From contig NZ_RJSF01000046.1 of assembly GCF_003725535.1 (NCBI RefSeq), positions 35,013-99,012 of the forward strand: a stretch of DNA of 64,000 nucleotides, in the 5' to 3' direction. Origin of the DNA: Nocardioides pocheonensis (GTDB lineage Bacteria > Actinomycetota > Actinomycetes > Propionibacteriales > Nocardioidaceae). Below the pieces are notes generated by a model that saw nothing but the letters and a program-made list of their open reading frames with translations, searched no databases and was not told the origin of the DNA. This document shows positions 43,333-61,082 of this stretch, piece after piece (the first letter of the stretch is position 1; each line of letters begins with the position of its first letter). The position numbers and the translations under genes were made by a program.

Positions 43333-44766
43333 TCAGGCGCCTTGGCTAGCGGAACTCGTCGATCGGAGGGTTGACTGAACGTCTTCGAGGAGCTGCTTGT
43401 AGCGCACCGGAGGTGCGCCGAGCGGAAAGTCCCGCAGAACTTGGTCGTGCAACCGCCGAAGCCGAGGAGGCACTGCCTTGTCTTGGCGAGCCAAGGTGTG
43501 CACCGCTACGACCCCCAGCAGCGCCAAATTCTGATCTAGGGCCAGGCCGACGCTCTCCGCCTTGGCCCACGCGGCAAGGTCCTGAGTTCCGGTGTCGGTC
43601 TGCCCACCGGCTGCGATGCTCGTGAACGTCGGGGTCGCCGCCGTGCGCGCTTCCTCTGCGCAGCCCGCCGACGACATGTAAAGCAGGCTGATCTGTGGCT
43701 CAGACTCAAGGACCCGCAATCCGTCGGGTAGTTCGACGAGCTGATTGAGTTGGGCGGAGACGATCTGGCACAAGTCGGCCCACGCTCGAACCAGTACGTC
43801 GACTGCGGGCGCCGCGAGGGCGTTGTGATAGCCACCGTTGGAAAGCAGCGCACCCGAAGGCGGAGCGACCTCAGGGCCAACAAAGATCGGGTTGTTGGAG
43901 GATGCCGCGAGAGCAGTGCCAGCGCACTCCTCCACCCAACTCTGAGCCCGGACGAGCCAACCAAGGACCCTCGGTGCGCTTCTGAAGGAAACCGGGGCCT
44001 GATACGCGCGCAAGTCTTCGGGATTGCGACCCGCGAGAAGTTCGCGAAGATGACGGACGCCGGATGCCTGGAACTCGTCATTCCACACCGTCTCAAGAGC
44101 CTCACTGTAGTGCGCGTCGGGCGCTCCTACAGCGGCAGCGGACAGGGCCAGGACGAGCTCGGAGGCTCCAAGGCGTGGCCTACCGGACAAGGCCACGTCG
44201 CACAGGACGGCGGCCGCAACCGGGGACCCGTTGATCATGGCCATGCCTTCACCCAGTTCCAGCGTGCCGTCGAAGTCGGCCCGGAACAGGTGGCTGAGCG
44301 CGATGATGTCCCCCGGCTCACCGTGTCCGCGCCCCGGCACCGGCGGGAGGTCTTCGTTCAACATCTCGATGAGTCGAACGGCAGTGTCCGCGCGCAGGCA
44401 CGCGGTTCCGTTCAAGACGTCGGCAAGGCGCGCCAGAAGGATCCCTCGAGTCAACCGCTCCGGGAGCGGATCACCGAAGGCAGCGGGGGTGCTCGGAAGG
44501 CGCGCGGCGTACTCGGCCCGCTCCACCTCACCCATGACCGTCTTCGCCGCCGTGTGATGACGCGTGGTCACGCCATACAACCGCTGGTCGGAGTTTTGAT
44601 CTACGAACTGCAGAAACTGCTTTCGGCGCTCCGCGATTCTCCGCAGCGCAGCGTCACCTAGTCGGACCTCCGCACCGTCTGCTACGGCACTCACCAGATC
44701 GAGAGTGAGGTCCGAAGCAGAGTTGATCTCATGTACTTCGTGATCAACGCCCTGACCGGCGGTCAT
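43333..44766 (-). CDS. HAL/PAL-family protein lacking the MIO-forming Ala-Ser-Gly
   Basis: A 477-residue protein of the aromatic amino acid ammonia-lyase superfamily: YGVTTRHHT (catalytic Tyr loop, Tyr64), LGEGMAMINGSPVAAAVLCD, SSNNPIF, and the helical core in the right order. The MIO loop, normally GASGDL, reads GHGEPGD (147-153): Glu150 and Pro151 replace the Ala and Ser that cyclise with Gly. It therefore cannot build MIO by the known route. It is the last gene of the NCS1 permease-hydrolase operon. Confidence 0.85.
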   Translation of the reverse strand: MTAGQGVDHEVHEINSASDLTLDLVSAVADGAEVRLGDAALRRIAERRKQFLQFVDQNSDQRLYGVTTRHHTAAKTVMGEVERAEYAARLPSTPAAFGDPLPERLTRGILLARLADVLNGTACLRADTAVRLIEMLNEDLPPVPGRGHGEPGDIIALSHLFRADFDGTLELGEGMAMINGSPVAAAVLCDVALSGRPRLGASELVLALSAAAVGAPDAHYSEALETVWNDEFQASGVRHLRELLAGRNPEDLRAYQAPVSFRSAPRVLGWLVRAQSWVEECAGTALAASSNNPIFVGPEVAPPSGALLSNGGYHNALAAPAVDVLVRAWADLCQIVSAQLNQLVELPDGLRVLESEPQISLLYMSSAGCAEEARTAATPTFTSIAAGGQTDTGTQDLAAWAKAESVGLALDQNLALLGVVAVHTLARQDKAVPPRLRRLHDQVLRDFPLGAPPVRYKQLLEDVQSTLRSTSSASQGA

Positions 44767-45623
44767 CGATCGTCTTCTGACGTAGTTGAGCGTCGTTGTG
44801 CATCGAAATGGTTGTCAACCAGCTCGCGGAGGAAGTCAGAGACCTGCTTGGGTCTATGTCCGAACAAGGATCCGTGCCCAAGACCCTCGATCTCGTGATA
44901 CCTGGCTTGCGGAGCGAGTTCTGCAAGCTCTGCGCTATAGGCGGGTGGGGCACAAACATCCTCTGAGAAGCAGACGATCTCGAGCGGAGAAGTCACCAAG
45001 GGGAGGCGGTCTACCAGATCGAAGTCGATGCACGGGACCCACTGTGTGGCCACGGTGGCCTCCGTATTCGCTACCGCGTCCGGATCCTCGAGCGCCTCGC
45101 GAAGCATCGGCCACAGGTCGGGATCTTGAAGGGCGCTAGCCGGATACATCATCGCTGCGTAATGGGTTGCAGAGAAGGCGGGAGGAAGACTGCCGCCTGC
45201 GTCACGGTATGCGACCTCGGCCCTCATGTAGTCGCCGATCCAGCCATGATGCCCCCGCGCGGCACCAGCCAAGGAAATGCCCAGAGTGACGAGTTCCGGG
45301 TAGTCCGCCGCGAGCTGCAGCATGATCAGAGCCCCGAGAGAATGCCCAATGACCACGGCCGGGCGGTCGCAAAGCTTCGTTAGAAGCTCGGCAGTATCAG
45401 CTGCGAAGTCCGCAATGGTCCATGGCAGCGGAGCCCTGCAGGTTGTGCCAAGCGATCCGCGGTTTTCGAACATGATCGACCGATACCCATCGGCAAATGC
45501 TTCGGCATAGTCGGGGCCCCAATCTGACGCCCGGCCACCTCCTCCCGAGAGCCACAGGATCGGCGGTCCGTCGCCGGTCTCTGCGTAGAAGGTGGCCAGG
45601 TTGGTCAGGTGAATCGGCGTCAC
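44763..45623 (-). CDS. alpha/beta hydrolase
   Basis: A 286-residue hydrolase with nucleophile elbow VIGHSLGALIML, an oxyanion glycine block (WLSGGGGRASDW), FSEDVCAPP near the acid residue and the catalytic His in IEGLGHGSLFG. It shows no lid of lipase type. Translationally coupled both to the upstream permease (GTGA) and to the downstream lyase homologue (ATGA), so all three act together, probably on one imported compound. Confidence 0.88.
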   Translation of the reverse strand: MTPIHLTNLATFYAETGDGPPILWLSGGGGRASDWGPDYAEAFADGYRSIMFENRGSLGTTCRAPLPWTIADFAADTAELLTKLCDRPAVVIGHSLGALIMLQLAADYPELVTLGISLAGAARGHHGWIGDYMRAEVAYRDAGGSLPPAFSATHYAAMMYPASALQDPDLWPMLREALEDPDAVANTEATVATQWVPCIDFDLVDRLPLVTSPLEIVCFSEDVCAPPAYSAELAELAPQARYHEIEGLGHGSLFGHRPKQVSDFLRELVDNHFDAQRRSTTSEDDR

Positions 45624-47122
45624 GGGTTAAGCGCCTCCTGCGCGAAGGGAGCGGAAGCCGCTTCATTGCGAACGTCGGTTGTGGCCCATTCCTCAAGATT
45701 GGCATCTGCGAGCTCGATCTGACGTCGCTCGGCATCGAGATCCATACTCCGCGAGAGCACCAGGTACACGCCGGCCGATACCGCCATTCCGACAAATGCT
45801 GCCACGTCGTAACCGAGGTGCTTGCCGATCGGGCCCGACCACCAGTGGGTGACGGCAAACGGCACCATCGCGGCAACACTGAGCCCGTAGGCGGTGTATC
45901 CGCGCCAGTTCCAACTGCCGTACATGCCGCGCGGATTGAAGATCTCCCGGATCGAGTAGCGACCGCGTCGCACGAGGAAGAAGTCGACCAGATTGGTCGC
46001 CGTCCATGGAGCGAGCGCATAGAAGAGGATCGTGAGGAAGTTCGCGAAGTTGGTCACGAACTGGTCAGAAGCCTTGAACGAAATCAAAACGGAGACCAGG
46101 CCGAATGCACCCGTGACCATAGGGCGGGCGAAACGTCCGGGCGTCGACGGGCGGAACGAGTCAGAAATGCTGAGCACGGTGAGACCACCACCGTAGGTGT
46201 TCATGCAGATCAAGATGGCGGTACCGACCAGGGTCACGCCGAGCAGGATGTGCCCGAAACCGCCGAAGACCGCGTCACCCGCTGCGGTCAGCCCAGAGAC
46301 ATAGTCGAGCTTGGGGAACGCAGCGGTCACAACGGCACCGATGCCGGCCACGACGATGCCGGTGATCGCCATGCCGAGGTAGGTGCCGAAGAACGAGGCC
46401 TTGGTGCTCAGATGAGGCAGGTAACGGGTGTAATCCGAAACGTACGGGGCCCAGGACAGAGTTGCGACGGCCATAGCGCTGGCTTGAAGCATGAAACCGG
46501 CCATGGAGAAGCCCTGGGTGAAGCTCCCGCTGCCAGCGGGCACGTCGAGGACGAACGGCGCAGCCACGACGAGCAGCAGAAGCGCGACGACGAAGGCTCC
46601 CGTGACCCAGCGCGAGACCTTGTGCACGAGGTCATATCCGGCGACTGCCAGCGCGACTCCGACGACGGCCGTCAAGATCATGCCAGTGTCGAGGCTGATG
46701 TGGAACAGGTTGTTGAGACCCTGCGCCAGCAAGACGATGCCGAAGACGTTGATGCCCAGGTAGGTGGCTACGGCGATCAGGTAAATGAGGACGGCGCCCA
46801 GGTAGCCGTACTGCGGCCGCGATTGAATCATCTGCGGGATACCTAACTGCGGGCCCTGCGAGGCGTGAAACGCAGCGAAGAAGGTCCCGAACATTGACCC
46901 GAGAACGATCGCGACGAGAGACCAGAGAAGATTCAAGCCACTGAAGAAGCCGATGCTGCCAATGGCGATGCCGGTCAGGTTCGCCGAACAGGCAATCCAG
47001 ACAGGGGTGACGTGCCACGGCTTGCCGTGCCGTTCGCGCCGAGGGATGTACTCGATCGAGCGCTTCTCGATCAGCTGCGTTGAGTCGGTCGACGTCAGAG
47101 AGTTCGGTGTCTGGTGAGACAT
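45620..47122 (-). CDS. NCS1-type permease (cytosine/purine/allantoin family)
   Basis: A 500-residue, twelve-helix NCS1 transporter. The N-terminal segment SIEYIPRRERHGKPWHVTPVWIACSANLTGIAIGSI and the helix GYLGAVLIYLIAVATYLGINV are typical, as is the SWAPYVSDYTRYLP block. NCS1 carriers import nucleobases, hydantoins, allantoin and related cyclic amides or vitamins by proton or sodium symport. It heads the hydrolase and lyase-homologue genes. Confidence 0.9.
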   Translation of the reverse strand: MSHQTPNSLTSTDSTQLIEKRSIEYIPRRERHGKPWHVTPVWIACSANLTGIAIGSIGFFSGLNLLWSLVAIVLGSMFGTFFAAFHASQGPQLGIPQMIQSRPQYGYLGAVLIYLIAVATYLGINVFGIVLLAQGLNNLFHISLDTGMILTAVVGVALAVAGYDLVHKVSRWVTGAFVVALLLLVVAAPFVLDVPAGSGSFTQGFSMAGFMLQASAMAVATLSWAPYVSDYTRYLPHLSTKASFFGTYLGMAITGIVVAGIGAVVTAAFPKLDYVSGLTAAGDAVFGGFGHILLGVTLVGTAILICMNTYGGGLTVLSISDSFRPSTPGRFARPMVTGAFGLVSVLISFKASDQFVTNFANFLTILFYALAPWTATNLVDFFLVRRGRYSIREIFNPRGMYGSWNWRGYTAYGLSVAAMVPFAVTHWWSGPIGKHLGYDVAAFVGMAVSAGVYLVLSRSMDLDAERRQIELADANLEEWATTDVRNEAASAPFAQEALNP

Positions 47123-47326
47123 GACGCATGCCTTTCTACCTGTTGTGAGGCTAGTCCGGTTGTTCGGCCCGACGCAGCCCTCAGTTTCCGCAAGAATCAC
47201 CCGCCCGTGACCCGGGTCACACGGCTCGTTCCGTTCAACGGCACGCCGGTTCCGGGCTCGAGTCGTGGGCCCCAGGGGTGGCCGATAGGGACCGGTACTG
47301 GGCCTCGCGGGCCTTCGGTTGCCGCT

Positions 47327-48265
47327 TCAGCGGGGGGAGGCCGTCGCCACTGCGAAGCCCGCGATCCACTCCGGTATGGCGTGATAGAAGCGGGAGTTCA
47401 CCTCGTAGTCGCCCGTCGCAGCCAAGGCTGCGAACGCGGCGATCCAGGTCCGAACCTCGTGCCCCGAGCCCCCACCCTGAGCGCCCATCCACTCGACAGT
47501 CCAACTGTCGAGGGCTGCCAATTCGTTCTTCTCGAGGTGGTCGAGGAACTCGTTGTCCCAGGCAGGGTTGATAGGGATCATGCTCGAATCCCCCGCCGCG
47601 TAGGCGCGGCCGGCGGCCACGACCCGCTCTTCACCCTTGGCCCGCTGTTCGGCAGTCGGCGGATGTCCCTCGATGAGAGCATCGGCAACTCGAGGCGGGG
47701 CACCCTCCAGGACCGGAACAGGAGGATCGTGCGAGAGACCCCCGGAGCCGACGAAGAGGACCCGTCTGTCCATCGTGGCTGCCACTTCACCTATTGCGGC
47801 ACCCAGAGCTCGGATGCGGGAGATCGGGCACAAGGGAGTCGCAACCCCGTTGACGAATACAGGGACGACCGGGATGCGGTCGATGCCTCCGAAGATGACC
47901 TCCAGCGGCTGCACAAACCCGTGATCGACCACCATTCGCGCGGAAACCGTCAGATCGATGCCCCGATCAAGGACACCTCGGGCGAGCTCGACGGCAGCCT
48001 CGTTGTCGACCGACAGCGGGCCGGACGCAGAGCCGAAATCACCCACGGCGGTCGCGCCTGTCGCGAGGCAGAACGGCGGCATCTCCTTGTAGAAGAACCC
48101 GTTGTAGTGGTCCGGTGCGAAAAGGACCACGAGCTCGGGATCGAACTTCTTGACCCACCCGCGCGCGGCGTCGACCGCCGCGTCGACGGCTGCGAGAACC
48201 TCAGTAGCGGGGTCGTTCTTCCCGATCAGTGGGGAGTGAGACAGACCAAGTGTGGCGGCTCGCAT
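47327..48265 (-). CDS. mhpB: 3-carboxyethylcatechol 2,3-dioxygenase (MhpB-type)
   Basis: A 312-residue extradiol dioxygenase of the LigB superfamily that cleaves 2,3-dihydroxyphenylpropionate or 2,3-dihydroxycinnamate. It resembles Escherichia coli MhpB along its length: GLSHSPLIGKNDPA, VVLFAPDHYNGFFYKEMPPFCL, VDHGFVQPLE (metal His), PVVPVFVNGVATPL, LFVGSGGLSHDPPVP and YHAIPEWIAGF. Iron(II) should bind the two His and a Glu. It lies 14 bp downstream of the zinc-free dehydrogenase gene, in the same transcript. Confidence 0.94.
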   Translation of the reverse strand: MRAATLGLSHSPLIGKNDPATEVLAAVDAAVDAARGWVKKFDPELVVLFAPDHYNGFFYKEMPPFCLATGATAVGDFGSASGPLSVDNEAAVELARGVLDRGIDLTVSARMVVDHGFVQPLEVIFGGIDRIPVVPVFVNGVATPLCPISRIRALGAAIGEVAATMDRRVLFVGSGGLSHDPPVPVLEGAPPRVADALIEGHPPTAEQRAKGEERVVAAGRAYAAGDSSMIPINPAWDNEFLDHLEKNELAALDSWTVEWMGAQGGGSGHEVRTWIAAFAALAATGDYEVNSRFYHAIPEWIAGFAVATASPR

Positions 48266-48278
48266 TCGTCCGACTCCT

Positions 48279-49259
48279 TCAGTGCTCGTGGTTCGGGTGG
48301 ACGATGACCTTGCCCGTGATAGCGCCGTCGATCATGAGCTGAAAGCCCTTGTGGATCTCGTCCAGGGGGATGGCTCGGTCGATGACCGGCCGCACCCCTG
48401 TGGTCTCGAGCATCCGGAGCAGCGCGATCATCTCGTGGCGTGTGCACCCGGTGGAGCCGAGGATGCGCTGCTGCTGGTAGAAGACCCGGCCGAGATCGGC
48501 GGACGGGTTCATTCCTGACGTCGCGCCCGCGGTGACCACCGTCCCGCCCGGGCGCAAGCACTTGAGGGTGTGGGCCCAGGTGGCCTCACCCACAGTCTCG
48601 ATCACAGCGTCGACCTTGGCGGGGAGCCGCCCTCCGGTTTCGACGACGCCGGCAGCTCCCCACGTGAGTGCCTCAGCTCGTTTGGACTCACTGCGGCTGG
48701 TCGCCCACACCTCGGCGCCAGCGGCGGCAGCGAGCATGATGGCTGCCGAGGCAACGCCCCCGCCGGCGCCCTGGACGAGCACCTTGTCGCCCGCCTTGAC
48801 CTGAGCCTGTGTGAACAGCATCCGGTAAGCCGTTCCCCAGGCAACAGGGAGGCACGCTGCCTCGTCGAACGACAGGCCCGTCGGTTTCGGAAGCACATTG
48901 CGTCGGGGAACCGTGAGGTACTCGGCGAACGCACCGTCGTGGCCTTCAGACAGCAGCGAACGGAGGGGATCGATCGTTTCGTCACCCATGCCTCGATCGG
49001 CGTCAGCGACGATCGGGTACACGACGACCTCGTTGCCCTCTTCGTCGTAGCCGGCCGCATCGCAACCGAGAATCCGAGGCAGTTGTTCTGCGGGGTGACC
49101 CACGCCGCGCAGCGTCCACAGGTCGTGCATGTTCAGCGACGAGGCCACGACCTTGACCAAGGCCCAACCCGGAGGCGGGGTGGGGACTGCGACATCCAGC
49201 AGCTCGAGGCAGGACAACGGGTCGATGGCGCTCTGCGACGTGGCGACAGCAGCTCTCAT
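48279..49259 (-). CDS. MDR-family dehydrogenase
   Basis: A 326-residue GroES/Rossmann protein: IDPLSCLELLDVAVPTPPPGWALVKVVASSLNMHDLWTLRG, PVAWGTAYRMLF, and cofactor site VLVQGAGGGVASAAIMLA. Family members reduce enones or oxidise alcohols. The start at 49259 fits the family. It is divergent from the Rieske dioxygenase operon with about 100 bp between and precedes mhpB. A role on a side-chain or intermediate of the aromatic pathway is inferred from position only. Confidence 0.86.
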   Translation of the reverse strand: MRAAVATSQSAIDPLSCLELLDVAVPTPPPGWALVKVVASSLNMHDLWTLRGVGHPAEQLPRILGCDAAGYDEEGNEVVVYPIVADADRGMGDETIDPLRSLLSEGHDGAFAEYLTVPRRNVLPKPTGLSFDEAACLPVAWGTAYRMLFTQAQVKAGDKVLVQGAGGGVASAAIMLAAAAGAEVWATSRSESKRAEALTWGAAGVVETGGRLPAKVDAVIETVGEATWAHTLKCLRPGGTVVTAGATSGMNPSADLGRVFYQQQRILGSTGCTRHEMIALLRMLETTGVRPVIDRAIPLDEIHKGFQLMIDGAITGKVIVHPNHEH

Positions 49260-49360
49260 GTCCCAAACCGTCTCTCGATCCGTGAGGAAGAGACACGGCT
49301 CGTGCCGTTGTGCGGCACATGCGGTGGAGTACACGGTCCGCAGCGACTTCTCTTCTCTGC

Positions 49361-50743
49361 ATGACGTCCACCACTGATCCCACGACGGTAGCGGTCACGT
49401 CTGCTGGGCCACACAGCGGCGCGATCGAGCTGCCCCATGGGGCCCTGCAACGGCCGGCGGAGATGCGGCGCAACATCGACGTCTCCGGACTTGTCGACCA
49501 CGAGGGTGGCCTCCTGGACCGCGCGGTGTTCACCGACCACTCGATCTACGCCCAGGAGATGCGCCGGGTCTTCGCTCCGAGTTGGCTGTTCCTCGCACAC
49601 ACCGACCAGTTCAAGAAGCCGGGTGACTTCTTCGCCACCTTCATGGGCGAGGATCCCGTGCTCGTCACCCTGACGAGAGAGAAGAAGCTCAAGGCGTTCC
49701 TCAACTCGTGTCGCCACCGAGGAGCCCGGGTCTGCCGCGCTGACTTCGGTCAGACACGCAACTTCACCTGTAGTTACCACGGCTGGTCCTACGATCTGGA
49801 TGGGAAGCTCGTCTCGGTCCCCAACGAGGCCGGATACCCCGAGTCGTTTGAACGCGACGATTGGGGTCTCGTCGAGGTGCCGCACATCGAGACCTACAAC
49901 GGCCTCATCTTCGGAACCTGGAATCCCAGCCCAATCCCGCTGCGCGAGTCGCTGGGCGACATGGCCTGGTACATGGACGCGATGCTCGACCACGACGACG
50001 ATGGCACTGAAGTCGTTGGCGGCATCCACAAGTGGGTTCTCGACGGCAACTGGAAGCTTGCTGCAGAGCAGTTCGCGACCGACTGGTACCACGTCAACAT
50101 GAGCCATGCCTCGGCGCTCATGGTGATGTCGCCAACCGGCAAAGGCCCCCGTGACGAAATCGTGCACCGAACCGGCCGGCAGTACGTCGACCCGAACGGA
50201 CACGGCGCGGGTTTCCCGGTCCACACGAAGAACCGGTTCGACGCCAAGACGGTCCACGACCACACCGACTACACGGCCCTGCGGGAACGGCTCGGCGATG
50301 CTCGCGTTGAAGGCCCGCTGACCAATGGTCACGCCACGGTCTTCCCGAACTTCTCGTACCTGCCCGTCAACGGATCCATCCGGATCTGGCACCCCAAGGG
50401 CCCGGACAAGATGGAGGTCTGGGCGTGGACGATCGTCGACAAGTGCTGGCCCGATGAGGTCAAGCAGGCCCAGCGCCTCTACAACCTTCGAACCTTCGGC
50501 CCGTCCGGCATCTTCGAGCAGGACGACGGCGAAAACTGGTCGGAATGCCAAGCCATCGCCGCCGGATTCATCACCAACGGCGTGGCCCTGAACTACCAGA
50601 TGGGCCTCGGCTCAGAACGCGAGGACGGCCGCTACCCAGGCACGACCTCCGAGCTGTACAGCGACGCCGCCGGCCGTTCGTTCTACGCCCGCTGGCGCAC
50701 CTTGATGAACACGCCGGCCTGGCACGAAGGGGACGCACGATGA
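49361..50743 (+). CDS. Rieske ring-hydroxylating dioxygenase, large subunit
   Basis: A 460-residue oxygenase alpha subunit. Rieske cluster ligands Cys117-x-His119 (CRHRG) and Cys137-x2-His140 (CSYHGWSY) are in place; the mononuclear iron site is at DWYHVNMSHA (His244, His249) with Asp241 bridging. It adds both atoms of O2 to an aromatic ring giving a cis-dihydrodiol. Start ATG 49361 avoids an unlikely upstream extension. Overlaps the ferredoxin gene by 4 bp. The MhpB enzyme nearby suggests a cinnamate or phenylpropionate substrate. Confidence 0.93.
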   Translation: MTSTTDPTTVAVTSAGPHSGAIELPHGALQRPAEMRRNIDVSGLVDHEGGLLDRAVFTDHSIYAQEMRRVFAPSWLFLAHTDQFKKPGDFFATFMGEDPVLVTLTREKKLKAFLNSCRHRGARVCRADFGQTRNFTCSYHGWSYDLDGKLVSVPNEAGYPESFERDDWGLVEVPHIETYNGLIFGTWNPSPIPLRESLGDMAWYMDAMLDHDDDGTEVVGGIHKWVLDGNWKLAAEQFATDWYHVNMSHASALMVMSPTGKGPRDEIVHRTGRQYVDPNGHGAGFPVHTKNRFDAKTVHDHTDYTALRERLGDARVEGPLTNGHATVFPNFSYLPVNGSIRIWHPKGPDKMEVWAWTIVDKCWPDEVKQAQRLYNLRTFGPSGIFEQDDGENWSECQAIAAGFITNGVALNYQMGLGSEREDGRYPGTTSELYSDAAGRSFYARWRTLMNTPAWHEGDAR

Positions 50744-51075
50744 GCGAGGGAATCCTGGTAGCGAACCTCGACGACATCGCCGAAGGCGAGGGCATCGCCA
50801 TCGACAAGTCCATCACTGGCACCGACGACAACATCGCACTCCTGCGCGACGACGACGGGGCCGTCTGGGCTCTGGACGACACCTGCACTCATGAGACCGC
50901 CTCGTTGGCAGAAGGCTGGGTCGAGGACGGGCACGTGGAGTGCCCGCTGCACGCCTCGAAGTTCTGCCTCAAGAGCGGGGACGTTCAGGGCCTACCCGCG
51001 ACCAGGAACACCTGCCCGCACCGGGTGGAGATCCGCGATGGCGGCATCTGGTTGTTCCCGAACGAGACACCATGA
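50740..51075 (+). CDS. Rieske-type ferredoxin of the dioxygenase
   Basis: A 111-residue [2Fe-2S] protein with Cys49-x-His51 (CTHE) and Cys68-x2-His71 (CPLH), the Rieske ligand pattern of BphF/HcaC proteins. It carries electrons from the FAD reductase (next gene) to the oxygenase. Overlaps on both sides: ATGA with the alpha-subunit stop and with the reductase start. Confidence 0.92.
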   Translation: MSEGILVANLDDIAEGEGIAIDKSITGTDDNIALLRDDDGAVWALDDTCTHETASLAEGWVEDGHVECPLHASKFCLKSGDVQGLPATRNTCPHRVEIRDGGIWLFPNETP

Positions 51076-52286
51076 GCAGCACCTGCAGCGTCGTCATCGT
51101 CGGCGGGGGAATCGGGGGTGTCAGCACTGCGGCCGCACTCCGCAACCGCGGATTCCTCGGCGACCTCACCATCGTCGACGCAGGCGAGCTTCCCTACGAC
51201 CGGCCGCCACTGAGCAAGGACTACCTCGCTGGCCGGAAGAGCCTCGACGACATCGCGCTCCAGTCACCCGATTGGTACGACGACCAGAGCATCACCTTGC
51301 GCAACAACACGACGGTCGCCGCGCTGCGTGCTGACAGCGGGACCGTCGAGCTCACCACCGGGGAGCAGCTCCGCGCCGACCGAGTCGTCCTCGCCACCGG
51401 AGGCCAGGCAGTACGACCCCGCCTGCCCGGCGCAGGCATCGATGCCCTGCACGTTCTCCGCAGCGCGGAAGATGCAGACAATCTCCGCAAGGTGCTCCTA
51501 CCTGGCGCACGCATCCTCGTCGTCGGCGCCGGCCTCATCGGCGCCGAGGTCGCCTCGACCGCCCTCCACCTGGGGGCCGACGTCACACTCGTCGACCCAC
51601 TCGCGGAGCCCCTCTCAGCCGCAATCGGTCGAGATGCTGCGGAGTGGCTTCACTCAGTCCACGCCGCCAACGGCATCACAACCATCACGGCCGGCATCGA
51701 CGGGTTCGAGAAGACAACTGACGGGATTCGCACCTACCTCCGCGGCGAACCACACCACTTCGATGCCGTCGTCCTCGGGGTAGGTATGACCCCCAACACG
51801 CAGCTTGCCGAATGGGCCGGCCTCGCCGTCGACCGCGGCATCATCGTCAGCGCCGGTCAGTTGACCTCGAACCCCGCCGTCCTCGCTGTCGGCGACCCGA
51901 CCCGGCGCACCGTAGACGGCGCAGTCCGCAAGCGCGCCGAACACTGGGAGGCAGCTCAGCACGATGGTGCGAGGGCCGCAGCCACCATCCTCGGCCTTTC
52001 GCTACCCGCAGAAACCGCCCCGTGGTTCTGGACCGACCGGCACGGACTCCATGTCGAGGCGGTCGGTCAGATGAGCGCTGCGACGACGGCAGTCACACGT
52101 GGCGCCATCGGCGAACCGCCGTTCGCGGTGTTCGGCATCCGCCACGGCAACGTCGTCTCTGCAGCGGCGGTCAACGACTCCAACGCCGTGCGCGCCGCCC
52201 GTCGCCTCATCGATCGCGCCATCGCCGTCGATTGCCGACAGCTGGGCGATCCCGGCGTCGACCTCCGAAAGCTTCTCCGTGCCTGA
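51072..52286 (+). CDS. ferredoxin reductase of the dioxygenase (HcaD/BphG type)
   Basis: A 404-residue flavoprotein. FAD-binding GGGIGG (residues 11-16), PYDRPPLSKDYLAG, NAD site GAGLIGAE (152-159), and the late FAD block AVGDPTRRT. It takes electrons from NADH to the ferredoxin. Start by ATGA overlap; 60 bp separate it from the beta-subunit gene. Confidence 0.93.
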   Translation: MSSTCSVVIVGGGIGGVSTAAALRNRGFLGDLTIVDAGELPYDRPPLSKDYLAGRKSLDDIALQSPDWYDDQSITLRNNTTVAALRADSGTVELTTGEQLRADRVVLATGGQAVRPRLPGAGIDALHVLRSAEDADNLRKVLLPGARILVVGAGLIGAEVASTALHLGADVTLVDPLAEPLSAAIGRDAAEWLHSVHAANGITTITAGIDGFEKTTDGIRTYLRGEPHHFDAVVLGVGMTPNTQLAEWAGLAVDRGIIVSAGQLTSNPAVLAVGDPTRRTVDGAVRKRAEHWEAAQHDGARAAATILGLSLPAETAPWFWTDRHGLHVEAVGQMSAATTAVTRGAIGEPPFAVFGIRHGNVVSAAAVNDSNAVRAARRLIDRAIAVDCRQLGDPGVDLRKLLRA

Positions 52287-52345: not shown

Positions 52346-52912
52346 GTGACAACAACCAACCACTCGACCGTCGCTGGCGGCCTCGCGTCGCTACAGACGC
52401 ACTTCGAGGTCCAGCAGTTCTACTACCGCGAGGCCGAGCTTCTCGATGACGGCCGTTACGCCGACTGGCTCACGCTGCTCGCCGACGACCTCGACTACTG
52501 GATGCCCACGCGCACCAACAGGTTGCGTCGCCAACAGGCCCTCGCCACCGCTGCACGCGGCGAGGCCGCGTTCTACGACGAGTCCAAGGAGTCTCTCGCG
52601 TGGCGGATCCGCAGATTCGACTCCGGTATGGCCTGGGCCGAAGACCCACCCTCGCGCACGCGCCACCTGGTCACCAACGTTGTTGCCCGCCACGTCGACC
52701 CCGACGATAACGCGGGGTTCGCTGCCGATGACCTCGCCGTCAGGTCGGCCTTCATCGTCTACCGCAACCGGCTCGAACGCGAAGAGAACATCTTCGCCGG
52801 CTCTCGCGACGACATCTTGCGCCGCAGCGACGAAGGGTTCCAGGTCGCCCGCCGCGTGATCCTGCTCGACCAGAACGTGCTGCTGTCCAAGAACATCTCC
52901 ACCTTCTTCTGA
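52346..52912 (+). CDS. Rieske ring-hydroxylating dioxygenase, small subunit
   Basis: A 188-residue NTF2-like beta subunit: FEVQQFYYREAELLDDGRYADWLTLLADDLDYWMPTR, then SRTRHLVTNVVAR and FIVYRNRLEREENIFAGSRDDILRR, the classic HcaF/BphA2 blocks. GTG 52346 follows an AGGGAGGG site. It stabilises the alpha trimer and has no metal. Position after the reductase, not next to the alpha gene, is less common. Confidence 0.93.
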   Translation: MTTTNHSTVAGGLASLQTHFEVQQFYYREAELLDDGRYADWLTLLADDLDYWMPTRTNRLRRQQALATAARGEAAFYDESKESLAWRIRRFDSGMAWAEDPPSRTRHLVTNVVARHVDPDDNAGFAADDLAVRSAFIVYRNRLEREENIFAGSRDDILRRSDEGFQVARRVILLDQNVLLSKNISTFF

Positions 52913-52923
52913 GAGGCCCCAAC

Positions 52924-53796
52924 GTGACCACCACGGAACTCGAGCTGATCCGCCACACCATCCCCACCACGCTGGGCGACATCAATGTCGTCGAGGTCGG
53001 AAGCGGCCCGGTGCTGGTGATGCTGCACGGCGGCGGCCCCGGCGCCTCCGGGATCTCGAACTACCACCAGAACCTCGCGACCCTCGCCCAGCACTTCCGC
53101 GTGCTCCTGCCCGACCAGCCCGGCTTCGGCAACAGCTACCGGCCGACTGAAGCCGAACTCGAAGCCCGTTCCATCACCGAGATCACCGTGGACGCACTGT
53201 TCCAGGCAATCGACGCACTGAACATCGACCGATTTCATCTCCTCGGAAACAGCCTCGGCGGCGCGGCCGCGATCGCGATGGCCCAAACACATCGCGATCG
53301 CGTCACGAAACTGGTCCTGATGGCACCCGGTGGCGGGTGGCTCCCGTTCGGCCCGACACCCACCGAGGGCCAGAAGCAAATGTTCTCCTACTTCAACGGG
53401 GCCGGACCTTCGGAGCAGAAGATGGCCAGCTTCATCCGAACCATGGTGTTCGACCACAGACAGTTCGGCAAAGACGTCGTGAGAGCACGTTTCGAGGCCT
53501 CCATCGAAACCACCCACGTCGAGTTCTACCACCACTACAACGCAGCGTTCGCCAAGCGCCGCGGCATGGACCCACTGTGGAAGGATCTTCACTTGATCAA
53601 GGCCCCCACACTGCTGCTGTGGGGCCGAGACGACCGCACAATCACCCTCGACGGCGCCCAGCTGATGCTCAAGCTCATCCCTGACGTCCAGCTTCACGTG
53701 TTCGGCAACTGCGGGCACTGGGTCCAGCTCGAACGTCAGGGCGAGTTCGAGCAGCACGTCACCACCTTCCTGAGCGACCAGCGGAGCCACTCATGA
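52924..53796 (+). CDS. meta-cleavage-product C-C hydrolase (BphD/MhpC type)
   Basis: A 290-residue alpha/beta hydrolase. Oxyanion block LHGGGPGASG, nucleophile Ser110 in LLGNSLGGAAA, acid in LLWGRDDRTI, His265 in FGNCGHWVQLE, all matching 2-hydroxy-6-oxo-dienoate hydrolases that split the ring-opened diacid to 2-hydroxypentadienoate and a carboxylic acid (fumarate if the substrate is cinnamate). GTG start 11 bp after the beta-subunit gene. Confidence 0.93.
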   Translation: MTTTELELIRHTIPTTLGDINVVEVGSGPVLVMLHGGGPGASGISNYHQNLATLAQHFRVLLPDQPGFGNSYRPTEAELEARSITEITVDALFQAIDALNIDRFHLLGNSLGGAAAIAMAQTHRDRVTKLVLMAPGGGWLPFGPTPTEGQKQMFSYFNGAGPSEQKMASFIRTMVFDHRQFGKDVVRARFEASIETTHVEFYHHYNAAFAKRRGMDPLWKDLHLIKAPTLLLWGRDDRTITLDGAQLMLKLIPDVQLHVFGNCGHWVQLERQGEFEQHVTTFLSDQRSHS

Positions 53797-54626
53797 CGGG
53801 CTGGCTCGAGGGCTACACCGCACTCATCACGGGCGGCGGGTCCGGCATCGGTGCGGCAGTCGCTCGGCGCTACGTCGCGGAAGGCGCCTCCGTAGTCATC
53901 ATGGGGCGCGGCAAAGACAGACTGGACAACGTCGTCGCGACCAGCGCCGATCCGAGCCGGATGCACGCTATCGAAGGCGACGTACGCTCCGTCGCCGACC
54001 TGGAGAGAACGGTCAGCGAGACCGTCCGCATCTTCGGCACTCTCGATGTTCTGGTGCCGAACGCCGGCATGTGGGACTTCCAGCGGCAGCTGACCAAACT
54101 GACCGGCACCGAGCTCTCCGAAACTTTCGACGAGCTCTTCTCGGTCAACGTCAAGGGCTATCTCCTCGCCTGCCACGCCGCATGGCCCGAACTGGTCAAG
54201 TCGCGCGGGAGCATCGTGATGACACTCTCCAACGCGTCGCTCTACGTCAACGGCGGCGGACCCATCTACACGGCCAGCAAACACGCCTGCCTCGGCCTGA
54301 TGCGAGAACTGGCCTACGAACTCGCACCCAAGGTCAGAGTCAACGGAGTCGCCTGCGGCGGCATGAACACCGACCTTCGGGGACCCGCCACCCTCGACCT
54401 CGACGGACGCTCGATCGCGACGTCCTTCGCAAACAAGTCAAGCGAGTCCCCCCGCCCACCTCTACCGTTGTGGGACTCCAGCACCGATCCGACAGACTTC
54501 ACCGGCTCCTACGTTCTGCTTGCATCGCGCGAGCAGGCAGGACCCATCACCGGACATGCCATCTCCGTCGACGGCGGAATGGGTGTCCGCGGGTTCCGCA
54601 GTGACGCCGGAGGCGACAACCTATGA
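53793..54626 (+). CDS. cis-dihydrodiol dehydrogenase (HcaB/BphB type SDR)
   Basis: A 277-residue SDR with GGGSGIG (14-20), PNAGMWDF (in place of NNAG), Ser146, Tyr159 and Lys163 (YTASKHA). The pattern ITGGGSGIG, PNAG and the loop RPPLPLWDSS are diagnostic of arene cis-diol dehydrogenases. It re-aromatises the dioxygenase product to a catechol for MhpB. ATGA overlaps with both neighbours. Confidence 0.93.
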   Translation: MTGWLEGYTALITGGGSGIGAAVARRYVAEGASVVIMGRGKDRLDNVVATSADPSRMHAIEGDVRSVADLERTVSETVRIFGTLDVLVPNAGMWDFQRQLTKLTGTELSETFDELFSVNVKGYLLACHAAWPELVKSRGSIVMTLSNASLYVNGGGPIYTASKHACLGLMRELAYELAPKVRVNGVACGGMNTDLRGPATLDLDGRSIATSFANKSSESPRPPLPLWDSSTDPTDFTGSYVLLASREQAGPITGHAISVDGGMGVRGFRSDAGGDNL

Positions 54627-56206
54627 GGACCAGACACATGCCCAACGTCGACATCAACCCCGCAAGTGCCGTCGCACGCCACGCGCGCTTCAACCCTGAC
54701 GCCACAGCAGTCGTGTACGCGGGCGGAGACCTCACCTACGCGGACCTGAACGACAAGGCCGCGCGGTTCGCGACCGTCCTGACCCAGAACGGCGTCGCGC
54801 AGGAGGACCGAGTCGCGTTCCTCGGCATGAACAGCACGTCGTTCCTCGTCACGATGCTCGCTGCGTTTCGTCTCGGCGCCATCTTCGTGCCCGTGAACTT
54901 CCGCCTCGCTCCCCCCGAGACCCTGGCCGTTCTCGAACAGTCCGGCGCCTCGGTTCTCGTCTGTGAGGAAGGGCACCGAGCTCTGGTCGACGGACTTGTG
55001 AAGCCCGCCGTCCTCGAGGCTCTGTTCCTCGTCGACGACGACTCCGAGGTGCCGGCCAGTTCGTCCGCCGCCAGGTGGACATCGTGGTCGAGTGCGATCG
55101 CGTCCGCCTCGCCCACCGCCGAGGTCAGCACCCGTACCGAGGACGACGTGGCCATCCTGATGTTCACGTCGGGAACAACCGGGAGGAGCAAGGGAGTCAC
55201 CCTGACCCACGGAAACATCTGGTGGAACTCCCTGAACGTCGAGCTGATGGTCGATTCGCGAATCGGCGACACCACCCATGCAGCAGCGCCCCTCTTCCAC
55301 GTCGGGGCGCTCAACAGCTTCGTCCTCCGAGCCCTGGTTCGCGGGAACAGGGTCGTGGTCCGCAGGGCCTTCGACCCAGCGCAAACCCTCGACGACTACA
55401 CGCACTACCAGGTCAACTCCACCTTCGCAGTCCCGGCGATGTTCATCGCGATGCAGCGCCTCCCCGAGTTCGACGCCGCCGATCTGAGCACGCTGCGTGC
55501 CGTGGTGGTCGCCGGGGCGCCAGTCCCGCCGTCGGTGATCACGGACTGGGCCAAGCGCGGTGTGATGCTGCAGCAGGCGTGGGGCCTGACGGAAACGGCG
55601 CCGTTCGCCACCCACCTTCCCGTGGACTGGACGCTCACCAAGACTGGATCGGCCGGCATCCCCATGCCGTACACCGAGGTTCGAGTGGTCGACGTGGTGA
55701 CTGGCGAGCCAGTGGCAACAGGCGAGCGCGGTGAAGTCATCGTTCGAGGTCCGAATGTCACTAGCGGCTACTGGAAGAACGACGAGGCCACCGGAGCTGC
55801 ATTCGATGCCGATGGGTGGTTTCACAGCGGAGACATCGGGTTCCTAGACGACGACTCCTGCCTCTACATCGTCGATCGGCTCAAGGACATGATCATCTCC
55901 GGAGGAGAGAACGTGTACCCAGCTGAGGTGGAGCGGGCCCTGGCAGACCTCGAAGGCCTGAACGACGTCGCTGTCATCGGAGTGCCGGACGAGCAATGGG
56001 GAGAGATCGTCGTCGCCCTGGGTTCTGTCCAGCCAGGAGCCGATATCACGCTGGAGACCGTGCGTGAACACGCAGCCAACAAGGTCGCCCGGTACAAACT
56101 CCCCAGCCGATTTCTGATCGTCGACGCCGTTCCACGCAACGCGTCCGGGAAGCTCGACAAGACCAACATCCGCCGACTTGCGGGCGAGACCGATGAGCGA
56201 GGCTGA
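54623..56206 (+). CDS. AMP-dependent acyl-CoA synthetase-like ligase
   Basis: A 527-residue adenylate-forming enzyme: MFTSGTTGRSKGVTLTH (P-loop), YFLRALV-like hinge, QQAWGLTETAPFATHLP, GWFHSGDIGFLDD, and the terminal Lys region NASGKLDKTNIRR. It activates a carboxylic acid, perhaps the aromatic or the dienoic product, to a CoA ester. Coupled by ATGA to the dehydrogenase gene and overlapped by the next gene. No CoA-dependent step is obvious in the rest of the pathway, so its exact place is unclear. Confidence 0.9.
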   Translation: MRTRHMPNVDINPASAVARHARFNPDATAVVYAGGDLTYADLNDKAARFATVLTQNGVAQEDRVAFLGMNSTSFLVTMLAAFRLGAIFVPVNFRLAPPETLAVLEQSGASVLVCEEGHRALVDGLVKPAVLEALFLVDDDSEVPASSSAARWTSWSSAIASASPTAEVSTRTEDDVAILMFTSGTTGRSKGVTLTHGNIWWNSLNVELMVDSRIGDTTHAAAPLFHVGALNSFVLRALVRGNRVVVRRAFDPAQTLDDYTHYQVNSTFAVPAMFIAMQRLPEFDAADLSTLRAVVVAGAPVPPSVITDWAKRGVMLQQAWGLTETAPFATHLPVDWTLTKTGSAGIPMPYTEVRVVDVVTGEPVATGERGEVIVRGPNVTSGYWKNDEATGAAFDADGWFHSGDIGFLDDDSCLYIVDRLKDMIISGGENVYPAEVERALADLEGLNDVAVIGVPDEQWGEIVVALGSVQPGADITLETVREHAANKVARYKLPSRFLIVDAVPRNASGKLDKTNIRRLAGETDERG

Positions 56207-59112: not shown

Positions 59113-60072
59113 ATGGCCGCCATCAAGAGCAAGATCAAGGTTGCGATCGTCGGCTCCGGCAACATCGGCACCGATCTCATGATCAAGGTGATGCGCACCT
59201 CCCGGCGCCTTGAGGTAGGCGCCATGGTCGGCATCGATCCCGCATCTGACGGGCTCGCGCGCGCCGCACGCCTCGGCTTCGCCACTACTTCAGACGGAAT
59301 CGACGGTTTGATCGCCCTGCCGAACTTCGACGAGATCGACATCGTCTTCGATGCGACATCGGCCAAAGCTCACGAGTACAACGCCGGCAGGCTCGAGCCC
59401 TACGGGAAACGACTGATCGACCTCACTCCCGCCGCCATCGGGCCGTATGTCATCCCTGCCGTGAACCTGGATCAGCACCTCGAGGCGCCGAACCTGAACA
59501 TGGTGACGTGTGGAGGCCAGGCAACGATCCCCATCGTCGCTGCCGTTGCCCAGGTCGTTCCGGTTGCCTATGCCGAGATCGTCGCCTCGATTGCGTCGAG
59601 GTCTGCGGGACCGGGCACCCGCGCCAACATCGACGAGTTCACCGAAACCACCAGTTCGGCGATTGTCCGGGTGGGCGGGGCCCGACGTGGCAAGGCCATC
59701 ATCATCCTCAACCCGGCAGAGCCACCACTGATCATGCGCGACACCGTCTTCTGCCTGGTCTCGGCGCCCGGCGCCGACATTCAGGAGGACATCGTCGCGA
59801 GCGTCGAGAAGATGGTCGGCGACGTCGCCGAGTACGTCCCGGGCTATCGCCTCAAGCAGAAGGTTCAGATCACAGAGATCCCAGAGGATCAACCGCTGGA
59901 GACCCTGATCGGCTCAGAGGGCGAGCGCCCAACCCATCAGGTGTCGGTGTTCCTTGAGGTTGAAGGCGCTGCTCACTACCTGCCGGCCTACGCGGGCAAC
60001 CTGGACATCATGACGTCAGCCGGAATCCAGGTCGCCGATCGGATCGCAGCCCAGAAGGTGAGCGCCGCGTGA
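59113..60072 (+). CDS. mhpF: acetaldehyde dehydrogenase, acylating (MhpF type)
   Basis: A 319-residue NAD-dependent enzyme converting acetaldehyde and CoA to acetyl-CoA. It has the N-terminal [18 protein letters not shown] dinucleotide fold, DATSAKAH, and the catalytic Cys in [11 protein letters not shown]. It functions as a tunnelled complex with the aldolase encoded next (GTGA overlap), so toxic acetaldehyde is not released. Confidence 0.94.
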
Positions 60073-61082
60073 CCACCAAGATCTTTGTCCAGGACGTCAC
60101 CCTGAGGGACGGCATGCATGCGGTCCGCCACCGCATCACCCCAGAAGATGTGCAGCGCATCACCCTTGCATTGGACAACGCAGGAGTTGACGCCATCGAG
60201 GTCGCGCACGGCGACGGCTTGGCCGGATCATCGGTCAACTACGGGCCGGGTTCCCACTCTGACTGGGAATGGATCGAGGCGGCCGCCTCGGTCCTCGAGC
60301 GGGCGCGACTTACCACCCTGCTTCTCCCGGGAGTCGGCACCATCCACGAGTTGAAGACCGCATGGGACCTGGGCGTCCGCTCGGTGCGAATTGCCACCCA
60401 CTGCACCGAGGCAGACATCTCTGCCCAGCACATCGCCGCAGCACGAGAGATCGGCATGGACGTCTCCGGCTTCCTGATGCTCTCCCACATGGCCGCACCT
60501 GAGGACCTCGCGAAACAGGCGAAGCTCATGGAGTCCTACGGAGCCCAGTGTGTCTATGTCACGGATTCCGGCGGGCGCCTGACCATGAACGACGTCTCTG
60601 CTCGAGTGCGCGCCTACAGAGAACTCCTCAACCCAGCTACCGAGATCGGGATCCACGCCCACGAGAACCTCTCCATGTCAGTCGCAAACTCGGTGGTCGC
60701 GGTCGAAAATGGGGCTTACAGGGTCGACGCGTCTCTGGCCGGACACGGTGCAGGCGCCGGCAACTGCCCGATCGAGGCGTTTGTAGCCGTGGCAGATCTT
60801 TCAGATTTCGAGCACAACTGCGAGCTGTTCAAGCTTCAGGACGCCGCAGACGACATCGTTCGCCCGCTGCAGGACCGACCCGTCAGGGTCGATCGCGAAA
60901 CCCTCACCTTGGGCTACGCAGGCGTCTACTCATCTTTCCTGCGCCACGCAGAGAACGCTGCGGCCCGCTACAACATCGACGTACGCGACATCCTCGTCGA
61001 ATGTGGCCGGCGAAAACTCGTCGGCGGTCAAGAAGACATGATCGTCGACGTCGCTCTGGATCTTCAGGCGGCCACCCACTGA
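60069..61082 (+). CDS. mhpE: 4-hydroxy-2-oxovalerate aldolase (MhpE type)
   Basis: A 337-residue HMGL-like aldolase: [14 protein letters not shown] (catalytic Arg/Asp and metal Asp), [44 protein letters not shown] (metal His pair and GHGAGN signature). It splits 4-hydroxy-2-oxovalerate to pyruvate and acetaldehyde. GTG start overlapping mhpF by 4 bp, which fits the bifunctional complex. Confidence 0.94.

What the first reader, a model, noticed from the sequence alone, without database searches (positions are those of the whole stretch)
43333..44766. Ammonia-lyase homologue without the MIO tripeptide
The Ala-Ser-Gly that cyclises into MIO in HAL/PAL/TAL enzymes is Glu-Pro-Gly here (GHGEPGD), yet the Tyr loop and helical core are kept. 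It is co-translated with an alpha/beta hydrolase and an NCS1 permease next to a cinnamate-like degradation cluster. A standard PAL would supply cinnamate to that pathway, but this protein cannot by the known mechanism.
Basis: partly seen in the sequence, partly recalled or inferred. Interest (0 to 1): 0.75.

Follow-up and report, generated by a model that had tools for sequence, protein, structure and literature searches.

The report
Ammonia-lyase relative lacking its cofactor
This soil-type bacterium's protein has the fold of enzymes that strip ammonia from amino acids but cannot build their usual self-made cofactor, and it belongs to a wide, mislabelled group that probably removes an easier leaving group such as trimethylamine instead.

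Summary
The 477-aa HAL/PAL-fold protein (43333-44766, minus strand) has Glu150-Pro151-Gly152 where MIO enzymes have Ala-Ser-Gly. Its gene overlaps an alpha/beta hydrolase gene by 4 bp, which overlaps an NCS1 permease gene by 4 bp, beside an hca/mhp-type cinnamate cluster.

It is not an isolated oddity. It is a fast-diverged member of a clade without the normal MIO site: one genome scan found 112 relatives, mostly with GAG or CPG at the site; EPG was seen only here. Among 139 usable sequences, [AC]SG-Asp always goes with HAL Tyr280 (45 of 45), any other site never (0 of 94); Arg283 and Gln277 are kept in 94 of 94.

The characterised precedent is MIO-free ergothionase, a trimethylamine lyase. 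Some clade members lie beside ergothioneine-utilisation, OsmF-like transport or urocanase genes, but 67 of 94 loci show no scored neighbour. The host has no urocanase match, so a cinnamate-type product from an aromatic betaine is my best guess. Activity and substrate are inferred, not shown; a pseudo-enzyme or another leaving group remain open. New variant of a known kind.

The parts
43333..44766 (-). MIO-less HAL/PAL-fold protein, 477 aa, predicted MIO-independent lyase
44311..44319 (-). Codons of Glu150-Pro151-Gly152, at the place of the MIO tripeptide Ala-Ser-Gly
44575..44577 (-). Codon of Tyr64, equivalent of catalytic HAL Tyr53 (place worked out from the ORF start)
44763..45623 (-). Alpha/beta hydrolase, overlaps the lyase gene by 4 bp
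45620..47125 (-). NCS1-family permease (PF02133), overlaps the hydrolase gene by 4 bp
47327..48265 (-). MhpB-like 3-carboxyethylcatechol 2,3-dioxygenase (489 bits, cut-off 291)
48279..49334 (-). Zinc-binding dehydrogenase family oxidoreductase (longest ORF; the start is uncertain)
49310..50743 (+). HcaE-like ring-hydroxylating dioxygenase alpha subunit (432 bits, under the equivalog cut-off of 830)
50740..51075 (+). HcaC-like ferredoxin (96.4 bits, cut-off 113)
51072..52286 (+). HcaD-like ferredoxin reductase (290.6 bits, cut-off 450)
52346..52912 (+). HcaF-like dioxygenase beta subunit (197.3 bits, subfamily cut-off 145)
52924..53796 (+). C-C bond hydrolase of the meta-cleavage type (best model HsaD, under its cut-off)
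53793..54626 (+). HcaB-like dihydrodiol dehydrogenase (320.6 bits, cut-off 330)
54638..56206 (+). Acyl-CoA ligase family protein
59128..60072 (+). Acetaldehyde dehydrogenase (acetylating), over cut-off
60069..61082 (+). 4-hydroxy-2-oxovalerate aldolase, over cut-off

Best explanation
A MIO-independent alpha,beta-eliminating lyase of the HAL/PAL fold. Proposed mechanism: Tyr64 (HAL Tyr53) takes the beta proton; Arg262, Gln256 and Asn179 hold the alpha-carboxylate; a substituent that is already a good leaving group, most likely the trimethylammonium of an amino-acid betaine, departs without electrophilic activation by MIO. In this host the likely substrate is an aromatic betaine (phenylalanine betaine or a relative), brought in by the NCS1 permease or set free by the alpha/beta hydrolase, and the cinnamate-type product feeds the adjacent hca/mhp pathway. 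Shown: loss of the MIO tripeptide, clade membership, retained carboxylate-site residues, gene context; the fold is predicted. Inferred: elimination, leaving group, substrate, roles of permease and hydrolase.
For: MIO tripeptide absent, Tyr/Asn/Gln/Arg core kept. Covariation over 139 usable rows: [AC]SG-Asp with Tyr280 45 of 45, other sites 0 of 94; Arg283 and Gln277 94 of 94, Tyr53 93 of 94. Top Foldseek match is ergothionase, which PMC13405746 calls a trimethylamine lyase lacking MIO (passages). Clade contexts: ErtD over cut-off in L040, L098, L111 and ErtE in L040, L119; an OsmF-like binding protein in L040, L072, L076 (the one scanned, L072, has 104 bits against a cut-off of 400); HutU over cut-off near L074, L075, L077 and HutF in L076. 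An independent MIO-less 'hutH' in A. tumefaciens sits beside an annotated glycine betaine/L-proline ABC transporter, urocanase-like and ErtD-like genes. The host has no hutU match and no second PF00221 gene, so urocanate is an unlikely product, while a cinnamate/3-phenylpropionate-type cluster adjoins.
Against: No activity is known to me for any clade member. 67 of 94 clade loci have none of the neighbour classes I scored; leaving out generic ABC and DMGDH-like hits it is 72 of 94. No thiourocanate hydratase over cut-off in 11 genomes or records carrying the lyase. NCS1 and hydrolase lie beside the lyase only in the window; NCS1 carriers are, as far as I recall, not betaine carriers. The window protein departs from its relatives at 23 of 97 columns that are at least 90% conserved, including Gly71 and a Lys present in 37 of 39, which also fits decay. 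HcaE, HcaC, HcaD and HcaB hits are under their cut-offs, so the ring substrate is not fixed. Ergothionase and HAL are tied as structural matches.
Confidence: 0.42

Rival explanations
1. MIO-free lyase of the same fold, but on another substrate or leaving group: for example an aryl hydantoin- or ureide-type compound carried by the NCS1 permease, or a substrate whose beta proton is unusually acidic.
For: The overlapping partner is an NCS1 permease, a family that by its Pfam title moves purines, pyrimidines and allantoin; ErtD/ErtE-type hydantoin and carbamoyl hydrolases recur beside rhizobial relatives. Nothing in the window context points to trimethylamine.
Against: No hydantoinase lies in the window operon; ErtD-family matches in the host are elsewhere and under cut-off. 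The permease has no solved relative at E 0.001, so its substrate is unknown.
Confidence: 0.22
2. Neofunctionalised or decaying protein without lyase activity (binding protein, regulator of the pathway, or pseudo-enzyme).
For: Long branch (1.88; 1.43); 23 of 97 conserved columns changed, including Tyr-loop Gly71 and a missing Lys; only one further genome in 341 of the host's family has a match at E 1e-15.
Against: Intact 477-codon frame in an overlapping gene string; third codon positions still richer in GC than second (0.725 against 0.495); Tyr64, Asn179, Gln256 and Arg262 all kept; a well-predicted fold.
Confidence: 0.2
3. Ergothionase or hercynine lyase proper: the clade and this protein act on imidazole betaines.
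For: ErtD/ErtE beside rhizobial members, urocanase or HutF beside actinobacterial members, ergothionase as top fold match. Likely for parts of the clade.
Against: For this host: no hutU-like match, no ErtD over cut-off, and an EgtD gene over cut-off, so it would destroy its own product.
Confidence: 0.1
4. An ordinary PAL/HAL that forms MIO or a MIO-like group from Glu-Pro-Gly or elsewhere.
For: Whole-chain homology to HAL and PAL.
Against: No Ser or Cys in the triplet; Tyr280 is Val; the only ASG is in a predicted helix at unconserved columns. In RxPAL the Ser-to-Ala change of the triplet abolished the MIO signal and practically all activity (PMC3903478, passages).
Confidence: 0.03

Closest known systems
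Ergothionase (ergothioneine trimethylamine-lyase), Treponema denticola, PDB 6s7j
   Same: Same fold, top Foldseek hit; lacks MIO (passages); an aliphatic residue replaces HAL Tyr280 (QDPLSFR against QAPVSFR).
   Different: 18-19% identity; its MIO site reads GEGD, not GEPGD; the one ergothionase-like row in my tree lies on the other side of a 100/100 branch, though on a very long branch of its own.
Histidine / phenylalanine / tyrosine ammonia-lyases (MIO enzymes, PF00221)
   Same: Whole-chain homology and fold; Tyr53, Asn195, Gln277, Arg283 equivalents kept.
   Different: ASG is EPG; Tyr280 is Val, Phe329 is Tyr, Glu414 is Thr.
Rhizobial, other alphaproteobacterial and actinobacterial relatives (R. 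tropici L039, R. jaguaris L040, L085-L164)
   Same: About 35-44% identity; mostly QAPVS[FYWIL]R; no ASG-Asp in the rows of this clade.
   Different: They read GAGE, CPGE or similar and keep Gly71 in the Tyr loop; neighbours are UbiX/UbiD, ErtD/ErtE, OCD or, in 67 of 94, none that I scored.
A. tumefaciens 15955 'hutH' in a betaine-ABC / urocanase-like / ErtD-like cluster (L176)
   Same: MIO-less (GSVGYLTH) and QDPLSLR.
   Different: Separate lineage, 24% identity to the window protein. The title of a paper on a bacterial ergothioneine sulfonate pathway is cited in PMC13405746 in connection with A. radiobacter; I have not read it.

Membership tests
MIO-dependent aromatic amino acid ammonia-lyase (HAL/PAL/TAL) | HAL/PAL fold and PF00221 match | tested here: met
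   150.4 bits against cut-off 27.3; VIA Z about 35 to HAL, rmsd 2.6 over 458 residues
MIO-dependent aromatic amino acid ammonia-lyase (HAL/PAL/TAL) | Ala(Cys)-Ser-Gly followed by Asp | tested here: not met
   Glu-Pro-Gly-Asp
MIO-dependent aromatic amino acid ammonia-lyase (HAL/PAL/TAL) | Tyr280 equivalent | tested here: not met
   Val
MIO-dependent aromatic amino acid ammonia-lyase (HAL/PAL/TAL) | MIO absorbance and ammonia release | not testable with these tools
   needs purified protein
Histidine ammonia-lyase equivalog (TIGR01225) | score over curated cut-off | tested here: not met
   109.1 bits against 539.15
Ergothionase | no MIO tripeptide | tested here: met
Ergothionase | groups with ergothionase in a tree | tested here: inconclusive
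   one ergothionase-like row (L119|2, matching 6s7j at E 2.7e-33) lies across a 100/100 branch but on a branch of 3.5; the T. denticola sequence itself was not in the tree
Ergothionase | host has the downstream route (urocanase-like hydratase, ErtD) | tested here: not met
   no hutU match; ErtD matches under cut-off
Ergothionase | releases trimethylamine from ergothioneine | not testable with these tools
   assay
QAPVS-type clade without the normal MIO site (defined here) | Q-A-P-V-S-x-R in place of Q-D-x-Y-S-x-R | tested here: met
   QAPVSFR, residues 256-262
QAPVS-type clade without the normal MIO site (defined here) | groups with the clade in a tree | tested here: met
   one of 51 rows on one side of a 100/100 branch; within a 15-row subclade at 100/100
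QAPVS-type clade without the normal MIO site (defined here) | Glu directly after the triplet | tested here: not met
   Asp153; Glu in 39 of 39 relatives of alignment A4

The most novel reading that the evidence does not exclude
The HAL/PAL superfamily has a large MIO-free part, several lineages with different sequences at the MIO site, that eliminates pre-activated leaving groups such as trimethylammonium; MIO arose only once or twice within it as an add-on that let the fold expel plain ammonia. The window enzyme is an aromatic-betaine lyase of that part, plugging a betaine straight into cinnamate catabolism.
Probability: 0.22. Interest if true: 0.82.

Novelty: new variant of a known kind. Interest (0 to 1): 0.55.

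Why it matters
MIO is the textbook reason why this fold can deaminate amino acids. A widespread clade that keeps base and carboxylate residues but drops MIO, together with a simple two-site mark (triplet plus HAL Tyr280), gives a test for sorting hundreds of genes now labelled histidine ammonia-lyase. If the clade are betaine lyases it extends bacterial trimethylamine production from ergothioneine to other betaines, and it makes the question whether MIO was gained late or lost repeatedly directly testable by assay and by a rooted tree.

Tried and rejected
Close orthologues: a single-query scan of genome contigs gave none, viral contigs with the R. tropici protein none. In 341 genomes of the host's family only one besides the host matched at E 1e-15 (32%); it has an OCD-family gene beside it. 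In 98 relatives 41 genomes matched at E 1e-3, many of these being ordinary MIO-type proteins, and in 394 genomes of the class 6 besides the host matched at E 1e-12. No second EPG protein was seen in the loci read; the genome searches are samples, so it may exist.

MIO elsewhere in the chain: rejected. Urocanate as product: rejected for this host. Thiourocanate hydratase in 11 genomes or records with the lyase: 8 have a match, none over cut-off; for R. jaguaris and R. tropici only the plasmid record was searched. NCS1 by relation to a solved carrier: no hit at E 0.001. Hydrolase: nearest solved relatives are BpoC-like, uninformative. Promoters and terminators: not above shuffles. NF058537, tried as a guessed neighbour of the Ert models, is an unrelated family. 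VIA-align rows below the HAL/PAL family are fumarases at Z about 14, not followed. Papers: searches showed ergothionase, MIO enzymes and MIO-less mutants but no paper on this clade among the rows listed (most searches list only the best 15-25), on hercynine, ert genes, thiourocanate, phenylalanine betaine and hypaphorine, listed no betaine lyase of this kind. Subscription papers are largely not in the library, so this is no proof that the clade is unpublished. PMC9002059 on the origin of MIO enzymes was searched for ASG-type words only.

Limits of the counts. The 94 'other' rows are mostly one clade gathered by similarity to it, so they are not independent events; one of 140 rows was incomplete and set aside. 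Seven named rows (L043, L075, L077, L078, L086, L094, L102|5) carry x-Ser-Gly-Glu and might still form MIO; they count as 'other' only because they lack [AC]SG-Asp. The 94 loci of the neighbour count happen to be a different set of 94 and include the window. 'QAT ATPase' and 'ProV' hits (9 of 94) include at least L039 and L124, which I read by eye as methionine-type ABC, so I do not rest on them; DMGDH, ProV and DMGDH-like names are by eye; OCD, UbiX, UbiD, OsmF, ErtD and ErtE representatives were scanned. One 'ErtE' BLAST hit, L076, is an allantoate amidohydrolase by NCBIfam. ErtD-like hits in L102 are under cut-off; those of L128 and L155 were not scanned. The 100 ORFs include a few MIO-type and misread rows (9 without a triplet). 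In the second tree I thinned 51 clade rows to 22 and left out the long ergothionase-like row; there L079 leaves the clade (92/50), so monophyly of the whole clade is not firm.

Full report
What is there. The ORF at 43333-44766 on the minus strand encodes 477 residues and matches Pfam Lyase_aromatic with 150.4 bits (cut-off 27.3), but only 109.1 bits against a cut-off of 539.15 for the histidine ammonia-lyase equivalog. It is the only PF00221 gene found in its genome. A profile of the protein with 50 relatives aligns along nearly the whole length of P. putida HAL and places the clade's G-x-x-G-E on HAL's G-A-S-G-D. In the window this is Gly149-Glu150-Pro151-Gly152-Asp153. One Ala-Ser-Gly exists at residue 234, in a predicted helix and at columns not conserved in the relatives, so it is not a displaced MIO site. 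The AlphaFold2 model is confident (pLDDT 89.9, pTM 0.91); its best Foldseek match is T. denticola ergothionase 6s7j (E 4.3e-18), and by VIA-align tyrosine aminomutase, ergothionase (Z 35.5) and HAL are tied.

Surroundings. NCS1 permease (45620-47125), alpha/beta hydrolase (44763-45623) and lyase genes overlap by 4 bp at each junction. An MhpB-like extradiol dioxygenase over its cut-off lies 201 bp upstream on the same strand. Divergently lie HcaE-, HcaC-, HcaD-, HcaF- and HcaB-like genes, a C-C hydrolase and an acyl-CoA ligase, further on acetaldehyde dehydrogenase and 4-hydroxy-2-oxovalerate aldolase over cut-off. HcaE, HcaC, HcaD and HcaB are under their cut-offs, HcaF is over one of its two, so the exact ring substrate is not fixed. 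The lyase and hydrolase genes have lower GC3 (0.725, 0.668) than the other 11 genes measured (0.766-0.868), which hints at separate acquisition.

Relatives. Plasmid tblastn found R. tropici and R. jaguaris proteins at 41%. A scan of the GTDB species collection with an alignment of four found 112 relatives, of which 80 were kept, mostly Alphaproteobacteria with a few Solirubrobacterales and others. Actinobacterial relatives came from whole-genome searches. In the 100 lyase-like ORFs of one cluster the triplet read GAG in 61, CPG in 10, SAG in 4, GSG in 3, ASG in 3, and EPG only in the window; 9 gave no triplet and a few are MIO-type or misread. In the host's own family one further genome of 341 had a match at E 1e-15 (32%).

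A two-site mark. On 140 rows below 95% identity, one of them incomplete, the 45 with [AC]SG-Asp all have Tyr at HAL position 280, and the 94 others never do; Arg283 and Gln277 equivalents are present in 94 of 94 and Tyr53 in 93 of 94, while Asn195 is kept in 72 of 94. Seven named rows keep x-Ser-Gly but with Glu after it and without Tyr280; whether they form MIO is open. The 94 are mostly one clade, so this is a strong mark but not 94 independent events. Further MIO-less lineages (GTGD, GSVGYLTH and SVGxSD types) show the same loss of Tyr280.

Trees. In a 77-row tree the 51 clade rows, the window among them, lie on one side of a 100/100 branch, and the 19 MIO-type rows on one side of a 100/99 branch. 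With broader sampling (58 rows; clade thinned to 22, the long ergothionase-like row left out) the MIO label needs two changes, bootstrap range 1 to 3, against 19.6 for shuffled labels; only 18% of 200 bootstrap trees have a single change, and one clade row (L079) is then not held with the rest. So MIO-bearing enzymes look like one compact group among several MIO-less ones in this sample; the root is not known, so gain against loss is open. The window protein is a long branch (1.88 and 1.43).

The window protein is itself odd. Of 97 columns at least 90% conserved in 39 relatives, it differs at 23, including Gly71 in the Tyr loop (His here), Glu153 (Asp), a missing Lys, Asp291 (Asn) and Arg338 (Ala). 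The Tyr, Asn, Gln and Arg of the base and carboxylate set stay. This fits a changed substrate, or decay.

How it most likely works. Ergothionase shows that this fold can eliminate without MIO when the leaving group is trimethylammonium: PMC13405746 states that it lacks MIO and calls it a trimethylamine lyase (passages read); the structure paper itself I saw only as a reference entry there. Clade context points the same way in part: ErtD (hydantoin-5-propionate amidohydrolase, named for ergothioneine use) is over cut-off in three loci and ErtE in two; OsmF-like binding proteins lie near three, HutU near three. In A. tumefaciens another MIO-less lyase sits with an annotated betaine ABC transporter, a urocanase-like gene and an ErtD-like gene. 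But 67 of 94 clade loci show none of the neighbour classes scored, and no thiourocanate hydratase over cut-off was found in 11 genomes or records. For the window, urocanate-type products are unlikely because the genome has no urocanase match and no ErtD over cut-off, and it encodes EgtD, the histidine methyltransferase of ergothioneine synthesis. The adjacent cinnamate-type cluster makes an arylacrylate the most economical product, hence an aromatic betaine as substrate; phenylalanine betaine is reported in gut contents of mice fed rye bran (PMC6621954, passages). This last chain is inference.

Verdict. The kind is known (MIO-free HAL-fold lyase), but this clade and the EPG form look like a new variant as far as the libraries and papers searched here go.

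Noticed in passing
L072, L105, L135, L144, L168 and others: An ornithine cyclodeaminase/mu-crystallin family gene lies within six genes of the clade's lyase in 12 of 94 loci, in both subclades, and beside the lyase match of another genome of the host's family; its role is unexplained.
   Followed up: partly
L039, L040, L098, L111, L119, L128, L155; L175 (Ensifer canadensis): Rhizobial and related clusters combine UbiX/UbiD with ErtD and/or ErtE-type hydrolases, without the urocanase-like and DUF917 genes of the A. tumefaciens cluster L176; in Ensifer the four genes stand without a lyase. What the UbiD decarboxylase does there is unclear.
   Followed up: partly
L176:16227-17720; L187:771-2267: Genes annotated histidine ammonia-lyase carry GSVGYLTH at the MIO site and QDPLSLR, so the annotation is very likely wrong.
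   Followed up: partly
L043, L075, L077, L078, L086, L094, L102: Clade members with x-Ser-Gly-Glu at the MIO site and Val at position 280: natural tests of what MIO formation needs.
   Followed up: no
G000:C40:811702-812601: The host genome encodes EgtD over cut-off but shows no hutU match and no PF00221 gene other than the finding.
   Followed up: partly
L119:3285-5099: An ergothionase-like protein (6s7j at E 2.7e-33) with what looks by eye like a signal peptide lies in the same locus as a clade lyase and ErtE.
   Followed up: partly
L180:765-2243 (Halomicrococcus gelatinilyticus): A haloarchaeal gene annotated aromatic amino acid ammonia-lyase has QDPLSIR and no ASG-Asp at the expected place.
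   Followed up: no
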